The translations under genes and the position numbers were made by a program. Positions 30,887 through 35,226 of a DNA stretch of 40,681 bases are shown here, piece after piece. This DNA is from Candidatus Nitrosopumilus sp. GTDB taxonomy: Archaea > Thermoproteota > Nitrososphaeria > Nitrososphaerales > Nitrosopumilaceae. Position 1 is the first letter of the stretch; each line of letters opens with the position of its first letter. The stretch spans positions 1-40,681 of the forward strand of contig JAOTVS010000012.1 in NCBI GenBank assembly GCA_029863275.1, given 5' to 3'. The notes under the pieces are model-generated. The model did not search any database. It worked only from the letters and a program-made list of their open reading frames with translations, and was not told the DNA's origin.

Positions 30887-31729
30887 TTGAAATTTAATCA
30901 TATAGAATACAAGCAAAGAAATATTTCAATCTGGAACGAAGTTGCTCCTCGCTATCATAAAAGATGGGCAAGTATTAATCAAGGGCCTTTTCAAAGTACT
31001 TCAAAATTAGTCCAACTTTTAAATGTCAATAAGGGAGATAAAGTACTTGATCTTGCTTGTGGTACAGGCGTAGTTACAAAAAAAATTAGAAGTGAGATAG
31101 GTAGTTTAGGATATGTTATAGGTGGAGATTCATCAGTTACTGCAATTAAAACTGCAAAAAAATGGATTGGAATAAAACCCAATTTAGATTTTGTAAATAT
31201 TGATGCTGAAAATTTTTATTTTTCAGAAAAATTTGATATTATTACTTGTCAGTATGCACTTTTCTTTTTTCCAAATGCCCAAAGAGTCTTAAAAAATATT
31301 AAAAAAAATCTAAAAAAAAAGGGTAAATTAGGAATAACAGTACATGGAGCTGCAAACAAAGTTCCTTTTTTTAGCAGTATTTTTGATGAAGTTACTAAAT
31401 TTATTCCCGATTATGTTCCTCCCGGATCTCCTGATTTAGATAGATTTGGAACAAAGTCATCTCTTAAGGACGAGGTAAGAAAGGCAGGATTTGATAAAAT
31501 TAGTGTAAAAAATTTTGTTTTCAAGTTCAATCCTGGAACATTTGATGATTATTGGAAAAATTATCTCAGATATGTAGCCACACCTTTAAAAGAAAAAATA
31601 GATGCACTTGGTAGATCACAAAAATTAAAATTGAAAAACTCGGTTCGGGAAAATGTAATACCTTACACTTTGAAAAATCAAACAATTGAATTTCCTTGGG
31701 AAGTTTTAATTTTAACTGCAAATTCTTAG
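30887..31729 (+). CDS. SAM-dependent methyltransferase, UbiE/MenG-like
   Basis: This is a class I methyltransferase of the UbiE/MenG-like group, which acts on quinones or other lipids; the substrate here is not known. The 280-residue protein shows motif I VLDLACGTGVVTKKI (about 53-67), motif II YVIGGDSSVTAIKTAKKWI (about 77-95) and FDIITCQYALFFFPNAQRVL (about 116-135). The start is TTG at 30887; no ATG is nearby. It is the last gene of the CoA operon region, 29 bp after the micro-protein. A quinone-linked role would fit the UbiB-like gene elsewhere in the window but is speculative. Confidence 0.87.
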   Translation: MKFNHIEYKQRNISIWNEVAPRYHKRWASINQGPFQSTSKLVQLLNVNKGDKVLDLACGTGVVTKKIRSEIGSLGYVIGGDSSVTAIKTAKKWIGIKPNLDFVNIDAENFYFSEKFDIITCQYALFFFPNAQRVLKNIKKNLKKKGKLGITVHGAANKVPFFSSIFDEVTKFIPDYVPPGSPDLDRFGTKSSLKDEVRKAGFDKISVKNFVFKFNPGTFDDYWKNYLRYVATPLKEKIDALGRSQKLKLKNSVRENVIPYTLKNQTIEFPWEVLILTANS

Positions 31730-31917
31730 GAATTTCAGAGGCATGTGAAAATTCATCAAGTATCAAAAACTAGTGCAATGAGGTTAGAGTAGCTAAAAAA
31801 TCATAATTTATCTTACAAAAAATAAATTTAAACCTAGAATATGTCTCAAACATGGGACATGTAATCTATACTATCTCTTTCATAAATCTATTAATGTATT
31901 AATTTTGATGATACATA
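31730..31917. promoter_or_regulatory. Promoter of the anchored surface protein, with a 20-bp palindromic element
   Basis: A TATA-like ttcataaat at 31880-31888 lies about 30 nt before the ATG at 31918. Upstream, atgtctcaaacatgggacat at 31841-31860 can fold as TGTCTC/GGGACA (one wobble pair) around aaacat. The 14-bp part TGTYTCAAACATGG (31842-31855) recurs at 33843-33856 upstream of another secreted-protein gene. Confidence 0.45.
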
Positions 31918-32799
31918 ATGACTTTAAATAATTTGCCGAAACTTCTAGCAGGAGCTTTATCACTAGTTCTTGTTTTAGGACTAGCATCTCCCGCATATGC
32001 AGGTGGTGGATGTTTTACTGGACAGGTAACACTTGAACAGTTAGATGAACAATGCATGATAGTTGGTGACAAAATGTTTGATAACTTTGATGTGACTGAA
32101 AACTTAATTGAAGGAGATTTAACTCAAAGAACTGAAGTAAATCTTGCCAATATCTTAGTGGTTCCTTGGAATGATGATCCATTAAATCCAGGACTAGAGT
32201 TTGTATCGCTAAAAAACGAGCTTAACGTAACTCAAGCAGCAGTTACACCTACAGGGGGACTTGATTTGGATATAGTATTTCGAGTAAGCACACTAGATAA
32301 TGAGCCAAAAATTAAAGATAATTCTTTGGTAGCATACTTTGATAGTACTCCACTACAAACGAATCCCTTCAATAGTGATAACTTTGCAGAAGTTAGAGAA
32401 AGACTATACGAAGATGCAGCCTTGACTATTCCAGTTGAAGATTTGACTGGCATTGTGATTGAAAAAGACCGTCACAGAATTGTTGATACACCTGATGTGT
32501 TTGTAGATCAAACTGGAATTACAGTGAACAGAGAATTTGCACCACGTTCAGAAATTTGGGTTTTAAAAGATCTTAGAATCTTTACTGCAAGTCAAGGTGA
32601 AACTGCTGAAATTCAGTCCTTTGAGCAACACTTCTCACAAGTTCCACCAACAGTAGTAGCAGGAGAATTACTCTCACTTGACTCATCAGCTCTTGTAATT
32701 GCAGGACTAACTGGCAGTGCAGTATGGATGATTCCAACAGTTGCAGGAATTGCAAGTGCTGGAGTGTATCTAATTAAATTCAGAACAAACAAAGAGTAA
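31918..32799 (+). CDS. Secreted surface protein with C-terminal membrane anchor
   Basis: The 293-residue protein has a signal peptide (1-28, with ASPAYA before cleavage) and an extracellular domain starting [18 protein letters not shown] and then [13 protein letters not shown]. That C-x-G...L...C..GD..F.NF pattern resembles the domain found in bacterial PEP-CTERM surface proteins. At the C-terminus, a hydrophobic helix (about 269-286, [18 protein letters not shown]) is followed by the basic tail KFRTNKE, the usual tripartite sorting/anchor shape, but no PEFG motif is present. A second, in-frame copy of this anchor follows the stop at 32830-32901. Likely a cell-surface protein; function unknown. 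Confidence 0.8.
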
Positions 32800-32829
32800 A
32801 ACCTCTTTTTTCTATTTTGTTTTCTTAGT

Positions 32830-32901
32830 ATGGTATCAGCAGTAGCTGGTATTTTTGGTGGTGGAGTATATCTGGTAAAGTTTAGAGCCAAGAAGAAATA
32901 A
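32830..32901 (+). other. In-frame second copy of the C-terminal anchor after the stop
   Basis: The sequence encodes MVSAVAGIFGGGVYLVKFRA, then KKK and a stop. It lies 30 bp beyond the stop codon of the surface-protein gene, in the same reading frame, with no stop between them. It aligns with the gene's own anchor ([19 protein letters not shown]). It is a tandem duplication of the 3' end, or the trace of an exchanged anchor. Readthrough of one stop would give a protein with two anchors. Confidence 0.6.
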
Positions 32902-33079
32902 TTCTCTTGTTTTTGATTATTTTTCTTTTGGACGTATTTTTTCCAAATTTTCGAAGTCAAAATTGGCAAAACAAGAAATTCCTACCTGAAACATATTGTT
33001 AATCTAGAATTTAACTAAAATTGTAACATTTTGAAATTTCAAGCTCATCTTTAATTAAATCATGAAATTGTGAAATGTA

Positions 33080-33712
33080 ATGACTAGAACGACAAATCTA
33101 CTAATGATTAGTGGTTTTTCAGTGATGTTTGCACTCGTAAGTGCAAGTGCCGAAGCTGATGCAGCAATTTATGTAAAAATTCCAGGTATTGAAGGTGATG
33201 TTACAACTGAAGGGTATGATAATGGAGAATGGTTTGTTGCAGATTCTTTCTCATTTGGCGTTGAGCGAGAAATGAAAGAATCCGTAGGAAAAGGTGGAAC
33301 ACAAGACATCAACATTGGAATAGGTGAACTTCAAGATGTTTCCATTTCAAAGAGCATGGATTCTGCTAGTGCACAACTTGCCCAACTTGCAATAAATGGA
33401 AATTCATGCGGAACTGCTGAAATTGACTTTGTAGAAATTGAAGAAAGTTCAGGTGAAGCAGTACCGTATCTAAAATACAAATTAGATCGATGCTTTGTTA
33501 AAAGCTGGAGTATATCAGGGGATGCAGATGATAGGCCCACTGAAGAGGTAGCATTTTACTACAACAAGATTGCATTTGCATACACTCCTCAGGGTGAAGA
33601 AAAACCAAAACCAACTAACATAATGTCTTGGGACAATGTAAAGAATATTCCTTGGGATACAGTATTTGATCCCATAAGGGATTTGATATTCCCACAAGAA
33701 AAATCAAAATAA
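33080..33712 (+). CDS. Secreted Hcp-like (type VI secretion tube fold) protein
   Basis: The 210-residue product has a signal peptide (about 1-28, ending ASAEADA) and then a domain with the Hcp pattern: AIYVKIPGIEGDVTTEGYDN (29-48), ADSFSFGVER (54-63), LQDVSISKSMDSASAQL (84-100), YLKYKLDRCFVKSWSISGDA (130-149) and PTEEVAFYYNKIAFAYTPQ (153-171). These correspond to the beta strands of Hcp, the hexameric ring protein of type VI secretion tubes. There is no type VI apparatus in the window and export here would be through Sec. A tail of about 40 residues follows. In-frame remnants of a membrane anchor lie downstream. Probably a surface or extracellular ring-forming protein. Confidence 0.75.
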   Translation: MTRTTNLLMISGFSVMFALVSASAEADAAIYVKIPGIEGDVTTEGYDNGEWFVADSFSFGVEREMKESVGKGGTQDINIGIGELQDVSISKSMDSASAQLAQLAINGNSCGTAEIDFVEIEESSGEAVPYLKYKLDRCFVKSWSISGDADDRPTEEVAFYYNKIAFAYTPQGEEKPKPTNIMSWDNVKNIPWDTVFDPIRDLIFPQEKSK

Positions 33713-33733
33713 CTTTCATTGATTCCAACAAAT

Positions 33734-33749
33734 CTTTTTTTATTTTTTT
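33734..33749 (+). terminator. T-rich terminator candidate
   Basis: Two T-runs (ctttttttattttttt) occur about 22-37 nt after the Hcp-like gene's stop, before the anchor remnant. This fits an archaeal U-tract terminator. Confidence 0.45.
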
Positions 33750-33754
33750 AAAAA

Positions 33755-33808
33755 GACCATGTCGGTATTGGAGTATATATGGTAAAGTTTAGAGTAAATG
33801 GAAATTAA
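33755..33808 (+). other. Anchor remnant in frame downstream of the Hcp-like gene
   Basis: The frame reads DHVGIGVYMVKFRVNGN and stops at 33806-33808. It is in frame with the Hcp-like gene, separated from it by two stop codons (33710-33712 and 33749-33751). In between, the Hcp frame reads LSLIPT, recalling the IPTVAG lead-in of the intact anchor. This looks like a membrane anchor that the Hcp-like gene lost. Confidence 0.55.
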
Positions 33809-33842
33809 TTCATCTTTTGAAATTTTTAGATTTTAAATTACG

Positions 33843-33856
33843 TGTTTCAAACATGG
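33843..33856 (+). promoter_or_regulatory. Motif TGTYTCAAACATGG upstream of a secreted-protein gene
   Basis: This 14-bp sequence, tgtttcaaacatgg, is one base different from tgtctcaaacatgg at 31842-31855. Its first base is 74 bp upstream of the ATG at 33917, and that of the other copy is 76 bp upstream of the ATG at 31918. Both lie upstream of TATA-like boxes, so a shared activator or repressor site is possible. Confidence 0.45.
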
Positions 33857-33916
33857 TTTAGATAATGGTAGTAATGCTACTCTATTGTTATAAGTTTAAA
33901 AAAAACCCTAAATTTA

Positions 33917-34480
33917 ATGAATAAAACAACCAAAGTCCTTTCAATGGCAGTTGTAATGTTTGCACTTGTTGGGATGATTGGTGGAATTGGATCTCAAGTC
34001 TTTGCAGATCCAGCTCCCGACGGTACAAAAAAAGTATACCAATTCAACATGATTGCTAAACCAAACAGCTTTGAAGGAAATTGTGGAAACGGAGATAGAA
34101 TCTTCATCGATACAGATGATAGAAGTTCTAGACTACAAATTACTGAAAATGGTGAGTGGGATGTTCTGGATTGTAACGCCACAAGTGACCGAACAGCAAA
34201 GCTAGGTATTGACGGTGCAGGAGACTACATTCTTTATGCTATTGCTCACGGCAAACCAGGAACAGGAATTGACGTCTGTGCAGACTATATCTCCGAGTAT
34301 GATGGTGATGGTGATCTTTGTGAGGTCGGTACATTTAGCATTAAAAGAGATGGCGGAAAATCACAAATGAACCTAGTACCAAGTGAACTATTCGATATTT
34401 CCTTGGAAGATGTTATTTGGGATATTGATTCCACAGGTGCACCAAAAATCCAGTTTAGAGTTTATCAAGTCCTAAACTAG
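33917..34480 (+). CDS. Secreted protein with cysteine-rich calcium-loop-like domain
   Basis: The 187-residue product has a signal peptide (about 1-31, TTKVLSMAVVMFALVGMIGG, then IGSQVFA). The mature part has four cysteines (one each in GNCGNG, LDCNAT, DVCADY and LCEV), probably two disulfides, and an acidic loop EYDGDGDLCE with a calcium-binding look. The remaining strands (KKVYQFNMIAKPNSF, KIQFRVYQVLN) suggest a beta-sandwich. There is no membrane anchor. A TATA-like ttataagttta lies about 24-30 nt before the ATG, so the mRNA is likely leaderless. A T-rich tract and a dispersed-repeat copy follow. No family recognised. Confidence 0.75.
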   Translation: MNKTTKVLSMAVVMFALVGMIGGIGSQVFADPAPDGTKKVYQFNMIAKPNSFEGNCGNGDRIFIDTDDRSSRLQITENGEWDVLDCNATSDRTAKLGIDGAGDYILYAIAHGKPGTGIDVCADYISEYDGDGDLCEVGTFSIKRDGGKSQMNLVPSELFDISLEDVIWDIDSTGAPKIQFRVYQVLN

Positions 34481-34487
34481 GCCCTAT

Positions 34488-34503
34488 CTTTTTCTTTTTT
34501 TTT
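34488..34503 (+). terminator. T-rich terminator candidate
   Basis: A T-rich tract (ctttttcttttttttt) begins 8 bp after the stop codon of the secreted-protein gene, matching archaeal U-tract termination. Confidence 0.5.
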
Positions 34504-34579
34504 CACAAATTCCGTTTAACTTCTTTCCAACAAACAAACTCACGTTATGTCTTAGGTTATGGCGCAGTTTTCACGCCTG

Positions 34580-34629
34580 ATGAGGAGGGGTTCTCTTTTT
34601 ACTGACAGTCGATAAACTTGTTAGCACTT
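34580..34629 (+). repeat. Dispersed repeat, copy 2
   Basis: This is the second copy of the sequence at 13871-13920, on the same strand and 100 bp downstream of a secreted-protein gene. In the best 37 bp only three positions differ. It sits in a 260-bp gap that otherwise shows no gene. Confidence 0.65.
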
Positions 34630-34740
34630 TACGAAGAAATTCAACCTAGGACCAAGTTATACTCAACAGTCACTCTAACAGAAATAAAGAGTTAAGATTT
34701 AAGTCAACTTTAACTGTATAAAATTAGGAATGAAGAAAAT

Positions 34741-35226
34741 ATGGTAAAAGATTCAAAAAAGAAAGAAGAAAAACCAAAAGAATCTCAATTTAAAAAATTT
34801 CTAATAAAGCGTGCCCCATTTTATTTAGCAGCAATAGCAATTTTGATTATTTTTATTGTTCCTGGATTAACAAAAGGTGATTTACAAAGTAGCTATCGAG
34901 AAACTTTAACTGAAGAAGAAATTCTAGTTGTAGATTCTTTAATGTCATATAATGGTCCTGATAAGGAAGGTTATAGTATCAAAGATGCAATATCAAATGA
35001 GATAAGTGAAGAATATCCCAATGAGGAAATTTATGAAAATAAAAAAACTAAGGTAATTACTAATGTTTCTAGTTTAGGGGAGAAAATCTATCAAGTTGTT
35101 TTTAATTTTGAATCACACAAGAAAGATTTTCATTATAATTGGAATATTGATATGAAAACAGGAGATGTTAAAGGAAATGATGAAGAGTCACAATACATTG
35201 TTGATTTAATAGATTTTTATGATTAA
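34741..35226 (+). CDS. Single-pass membrane protein with PepSY-like external domain
   Basis: The 161-residue protein has a very basic, lysine-rich N-terminus (residues 1-28), one membrane helix (about 29-46, FYLAAIAILIIFIVPGL) and an acidic outer domain. The outer domain contains a pattern like PepSY proteins: YSIKDAISNEISEEYPN, strand-forming TKVITNVSSLGEKIYQVVFNF and HYNWNIDMKTGDVKGND. PepSY domains are linked to peptidase inhibition or regulation. The similarity is only suggestive. It is a single gene, convergent with the M24 peptidase 18 bp away. Its context is a possible peptidase partner, which is inference. Confidence 0.65.
   Translation: MVKDSKKKEEKPKESQFKKFLIKRAPFYLAAIAILIIFIVPGLTKGDLQSSYRETLTEEEILVVDSLMSYNGPDKEGYSIKDAISNEISEEYPNEEIYENKKTKVITNVSSLGEKIYQVVFNFESHKKDFHYNWNIDMKTGDVKGNDEESQYIVDLIDFYD

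What the first reader, a model, noticed from the sequence alone, without database searches (positions are those of the whole stretch)
33080..33808. Hcp-like tube protein with a signal peptide but no type VI secretion system, followed by a lost membrane anchor
The mature part follows the Hcp strand order almost throughout, but the protein carries a Sec signal peptide and is encoded among archaeal surface proteins, with no type VI genes nearby. Hcp forms hexameric rings and tubes, so an exported archaeal version could be a surface tube, sheath or adhesin. Downstream, in the same frame but after two stops, lies a remnant of the neighbouring surface-protein anchor, suggesting that this protein was once membrane-bound and became free.
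Basis: partly seen in the sequence, partly recalled or inferred. Interest (0 to 1): 0.7.

Follow-up and report, generated by a model that had tools for sequence, protein, structure and literature searches.

The report
Secreted archaeal Hcp protein without T6SS
An ammonia-oxidising-type archaeon exports a protein that in bacteria forms the inner tube of the type VI toxin-injection machine, yet it has no such machine; related archaea often pair this exported protein with a second, larger one, suggesting a reused cell-surface building block, while the 'lost anchor' next to it turned out to be one copy of a repeated scrap of DNA.

Summary
The Hcp call is right. ORF 33080-33712 carries a full Hcp domain (Pfam PF05638, E 5e-25) behind a Sec-type signal peptide. 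Its predicted fold matches solved Hcp structures (best EvpC 3eaa, E 1e-11). TssC sheath and VgrG are absent from its genome and from 12 other Hcp-bearing archaeal genomes. It is under purifying selection (dN/dS about 0.19).

The lost-anchor story is not supported. The downstream 'GVYMVKFR' remnant is real, but none of 24 other archaeal Hcp genes has one, and no archaeal Hcp examined has a C-terminal membrane segment. It is one of 15 detached copies of a tail motif scattered through this genome, often 90-220 bp upstream of another secreted-protein gene. The Hcp gene sits in a 3-kb, three-gene insert (31734-34731) that nine relatives lack at this site.

New here: 22 of 250 family genomes encode Hcp above cut-off, and 13 carry a neighbouring pair, a short secreted Hcp plus a secreted Hcp fused to other domains (Ig/HYR, NHL propeller, W-W repeats). 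The archaeal Hcps are intermixed with bacterial T6SS Hcps, so acquisition was probably repeated. Best reading: exported Hcp rings repurposed as an extracellular assembly; rings and tubes are inferred, not shown.

The parts
33080..33712 (+). secreted Hcp gene (210 aa plus stop)
33080..33163 (+). predicted Sec signal peptide, residues 1-28, cleavage after ADA
   Evidence: sequence and hydropathy; bacterial matches start at residue 30; no SignalP available
33170..33583 (+). Hcp domain (PF05638), residues 31-168
33584..33709 (+). C-terminal extension after the Hcp barrel, mostly low confidence in the model, no membrane segment
33764..33811 (+). detached tail motif (GVYMVKFR), one of 15 detached copies in the genome; not a lost Hcp anchor
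32857..32904 (+). second detached tail motif (GVYLVKFR), 217 bp upstream of the Hcp start codon (measured from its GGAGTA core)
31918..32799 (+). surface protein with signal peptide and a genuine C-terminal hydrophobic tail (the same motif at 32755-32799)
33917..34480 (+). secreted protein of unknown family, last gene of the insert
31734..34731 (+). about 3-kb insert with three secreted-protein genes, absent at this site in nine genus relatives; TTAGGAAT at both ends (31726-31733 and 34724-34731)

Best explanation
This is a true Hcp-domain protein that has left the type VI secretion system. It is exported through Sec, folds outside the membrane into the Hcp barrel and most likely forms hexameric rings there. 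The rings would act as a structural or scaffolding surface protein, possibly as short stacks nucleated or anchored by larger Hcp-headed proteins where a partner gene exists. Shown: domain, fold prediction, absence of T6SS parts, purifying selection, recurrent pairing with an Hcp-headed partner in relatives, accessory insertion site. By inspection only: the signal peptide. Inferred: export, rings, stacking and the surface role. The detached tail beside it is a separate dispersed repeat.
For: Pfam E 5e-25 over the full profile. Alignment-based model: mean pLDDT 74.6, pTM 0.73; the listed PDB matches are nearly all Hcp, the rest mostly constructs that contain an Hcp (best 3eaa E 1.2e-11, TM 0.69/0.76). 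TssC and VgrG absent in 13 of 13 Hcp-bearing genomes with a working control. All 44 archaeal Hcp ORFs listed (39 genes, five listed twice) begin with a hydrophobic leader. 22 of 250 family genomes have Hcp above cut-off; 13 have a pair within 1.5 kb. Long partners carry Ig/HYR, thrombospondin-3, NHL or W-W repeats. dN 0.26, dS 1.38 against the nearest orthologue. Bacterial relatives whose annotated neighbourhood was read lie in T6SS operons and are leaderless. Hcp hexamers are very stable, while ring-ring contact is weak (KD 7.2 uM; PMC3925092).
Against: No multimer prediction or experiment shows rings. In this genome both Hcp genes are singletons without the long partner, so the cap/anchor idea cannot apply in its simple form here. 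EAEC Hcp1 does not form tubes alone in vitro (PMC3925092). The extended loop is low-confidence in the model. A surface location rests on the signal peptide alone.
Confidence: 0.6

Rival explanations
1. The protein is an ordinary monomeric or small-oligomer secreted beta-barrel adhesin domain; the Hcp fold is kept but ring formation has been lost.
For: The Hcp domain is found fused to adhesin-like repeats in partners; no T6SS partner constrains ring geometry; archaeal Hcps outside the nearest clade share only about 20-30% identity with the window protein.
Against: Conserved Hcp core and dN/dS of about 0.19; at least one archaeal copy keeps 45-50% identity to bacterial tube proteins.
Confidence: 0.25
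2. One reading: a formerly membrane-anchored Hcp that lost its C-terminal anchor by two stop codons.
For: The remnant is real and in frame.
Against: No other archaeal Hcp has an anchor in or after the gene; 15 detached tails exist genome-wide, nine of them upstream of signal-peptide genes, four of those with no same-strand gene close before them; another detached tail follows a gene that still has its own tail (32863). Being in the same frame has a one in three chance.
Confidence: 0.04
3. The exported Hcp is cargo or tube of an unrecognised contractile injection system whose other parts are too divergent to detect.
For: One Hcp-bearing relative (G046) has a phage-sheath-like and a PAAR protein, on a contig without Hcp.
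Against: Tubes of known contractile systems assemble in the cytoplasm and need no signal peptide (general knowledge); sheath and PAAR are absent in 11 of 12 genomes including this one, VgrG in all 13; no conserved neighbours other than the Hcp partner.
Confidence: 0.04

Closest known systems
[quoted passage not shown] EvpC 3eaa, P. aeruginosa Hcp1 1y12)
   Same: Domain, predicted fold, sequence (45-50% for one archaeal paralogue tested); the bacterial protein starts where the mature archaeal one starts.
   Different: Carries a Sec signal peptide, is encoded with secreted proteins, no sheath or spike genes in the genome, C-terminal extension.
Evolved (fused) Hcp of bacterial T6SS, Hcp with C-terminal extension domains (from general knowledge)
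   Same: The long archaeal partner also has an N-terminal Hcp domain followed by extra domains.
   Different: Extra domains are adhesin/Ig/propeller-like rather than toxins, and both proteins carry signal peptides.
Archaeal phage-like protein translocation structures (PLTS; PMC9012536)
   Same: Archaeal machines related to T6SS and phage tails.
   Different: Those are contractile gene clusters with PAAR spikes; no sheath or PAAR is found in this genome.

Membership tests
Hcp domain family (PF05638) | full-length profile match over the curated cut-off | tested here: met
   88.6 bits against 23.5, 1-129/129
Hcp domain family (PF05638) | Hcp beta-barrel fold | tested here: met
   AF2 with a 10-sequence alignment, best Foldseek match 3eaa E 1.2e-11, prob 1.00; the model is moderate, low confidence at 36-54 and after 167
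Hcp domain family (PF05638) | hexameric ring | not testable with these tools
   only monomer prediction available
T6SS tube protein TssD (TIGR03344) | score over NCBIfam cut-off | tested here: not met
   29.2 against 58.9 bits
T6SS tube protein TssD | sheath (TssC) and spike (VgrG) in the same genome | tested here: not met
   0 of 13 genomes, control positive in E. coli
T6SS tube protein TssD | cytoplasmic, no Sec signal peptide | tested here: not met
   hydrophobic leader with an ADA site in front of the position where bacterial Hcp starts; by inspection, no SignalP run

The most novel reading that the evidence does not exclude
Ammonia-oxidising-type archaea have repeatedly taken T6SS tube proteins from bacteria, added signal peptides and built a new kind of extracellular ring or tube: a Sec-exported Hcp shaft with an Hcp-headed adhesive cap or base.
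Probability: 0.25. Interest if true: 0.75.

Novelty: new variant of a known kind. Interest (0 to 1): 0.5.

Why it matters
Hcp is treated as a marker of type VI secretion, so automatic annotation would call this archaeon a carrier of a weapon it does not have. If the exported protein forms rings or tubes, it would be an example of a phage-tail/T6SS tube protein turned into a surface structure, in an abundant group of archaea whose cell-surface structures are poorly known. The recurring short-plus-long pair gives a directly testable two-protein system. I found no description of it in nine searches of the held paper library, which lacks most subscription papers.

Tried and rejected
Single-sequence structure prediction was useless (pLDDT 35.5). 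A ten-sequence divergent alignment gave no searchable stretch for the collection scan. A conserved neighbour gene beyond the Hcp partner was sought and not found (part of that output was cut). Viral origin: the phage collection gave only one weak hit, to a Salmonella record annotated as Hcp1, and viral fold matches are weak, tail-tube-like ones. Lost anchor: rejected. A loop-deleted partner as a general 'cap' signature was considered from the sequences and dropped: it holds for G006, not for G088 or G224. Papers with 'Hcp' near archaeal terms concern other things, e.g. hydroxylamine reductase.

Full report
What is there. ORF 33080-33712 (+, 210 aa) has a predicted Sec signal peptide (residues 1-28) and a complete Hcp domain at residues 31-168 (Pfam PF05638, E 5e-25). 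It is below the NCBIfam cut-off for the T6SS tube protein model. Sequence search of the PDB gives EvpC at 4e-13. A model from an alignment of ten sequences (mean pLDDT 74.6, pTM 0.73) is confident in the core; Foldseek returns Hcp structures at the top (3eaa E 1.2e-11, TM 0.69/0.76). A single-sequence model was useless. The mature protein is under purifying selection against its nearest orthologue in G006 (dN 0.26, dS 1.38).

No type VI system. TssC (PF05943) and VgrG (PF05954) were sought in 13 Hcp-bearing genomes, two of them single-contig; none was found while the E. coli control was positive. Phage sheath and PAAR were sought in 12 and found only in G046, on a contig other than those of its Hcp genes. 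The bacterial relatives whose annotated neighbourhood I read sit in tss operons and have no leader. Bacterial matches start at residue 30 of the window protein, just after the leader.

Relatives. In the family, 28 of 250 genomes match at E 0.001 and 22 exceed the cut-off. In 13 genomes there are two Hcp genes within 1.5 kb: a short secreted one and a longer secreted one with an N-terminal Hcp domain followed by W-W repeats, Ig-like, HYR, thrombospondin-3 or NHL propeller domains. Most pairs are tandem; in G046 and G048 they are divergent. All 44 listed Hcp ORFs (39 genes, five listed twice) have a hydrophobic leader and none has a strong C-terminal hydrophobic segment. No other neighbour is conserved in the part of the output I could read, apart from shared chromosomal backbone at a few sites. 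Across the phylum 11 of 398 sampled genomes match. In a tree of 40 Hcp domains the archaeal rows are mixed with bacterial ones (6 changes, at least 2 forced by well-supported branches), so more than one transfer is likely, though the alignment is short and some branches are long. The window protein, G006_S, G088_S and G088_L form one supported clade; the second Hcp of this genome lies in another.

The 'lost anchor'. The remnant at 33764-33811 is real (0 of 2000 shuffles) and in frame. It is not the Hcp's own. The tail motif occurs 26 times in this genome against 0 for the reversed control pattern: 11 copies end intact surface-protein genes, 15 are detached. Nine of the 15 have a signal-peptide gene starting within 250 bp downstream on the same strand (three at 94 bp and one at 91 bp, taking the internal start for one of them), and in four of those nine no same-strand gene ends within 280 bp upstream. 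In the window itself another detached tail (32857-32904) follows a gene that keeps its own tail. The motif is absent from seven of nine genus relatives, including G006 with the Hcp orthologue. None of 24 other archaeal Hcp genes has it downstream. The conserved block is about 35-40 bp. Whether it is a duplicated gene end, a recombination scar or an upstream regulatory element is open.

The insert. In eight of nine genus relatives the methyltransferase gene (window 30887-31729) is followed directly by the gene at 34741; the ninth lacks the methyltransferase there, and none has Hcp there. The window has about 3 kb more, holding three secreted-protein genes, with TTAGGAAT at both ends. This looks like a single insertion with a short target duplication or microhomology; I see no transposase in it.

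Mechanism. Shown: domain, predicted fold, no T6SS parts, selection, recurring pair. By inspection: signal peptide. Inferred: Sec export, ring assembly, surface role. In EAEC Hcp1 the hexamer is stable but ring-ring contact is weak (KD 7.2 uM) and tubes do not form alone (PMC3925092); so free rings are more likely than long tubes unless something nucleates stacking. In relatives the Hcp-headed partner is a natural candidate for that; this genome has no such partner, so here a ring or a scaffold is the safer guess.

Limits. No multimer prediction, no SignalP, no expression data. The genome is a 103-contig draft (98.95% complete). The literature search covers open-licence papers only.

Noticed in passing
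window 32857-32904 and 33764-33811; genome loci L055-L058, L063-L066, L072, L074-L079: A dispersed 35-40 bp tail motif (GxGVYLVKFR frame, DNA GGTAAAGTTTAGA), 15 detached copies, often 90-220 bp upstream of secreted-protein genes; three share CTAGA...GTAAT downstream. Possible recombination or promoter element.
   Followed up: partly
window 31726-34731: 3-kb island of three secreted-protein genes inserted between a methyltransferase gene and a small membrane protein gene, flanked by TTAGGAAT, absent in nine relatives.
   Followed up: partly
G000:C101:22741-23286 (L034:10742-11287): A second secreted Hcp gene in the same genome, from a different Hcp clade, also without a long partner and with detached tails nearby on the other strand.
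   Followed up: partly
G046:C3:21898-22233 and 80611-80796: Phage-sheath-like and PAAR proteins in one Nitrosopumilaceae relative, possibly a contractile injection system.
   Followed up: no
L026-L031 (six genomes of genus g13): Weak sub-threshold Hcp-profile matches with two or three TAG codons inside, in small genomes; perhaps decayed genes or chance.
   Followed up: no
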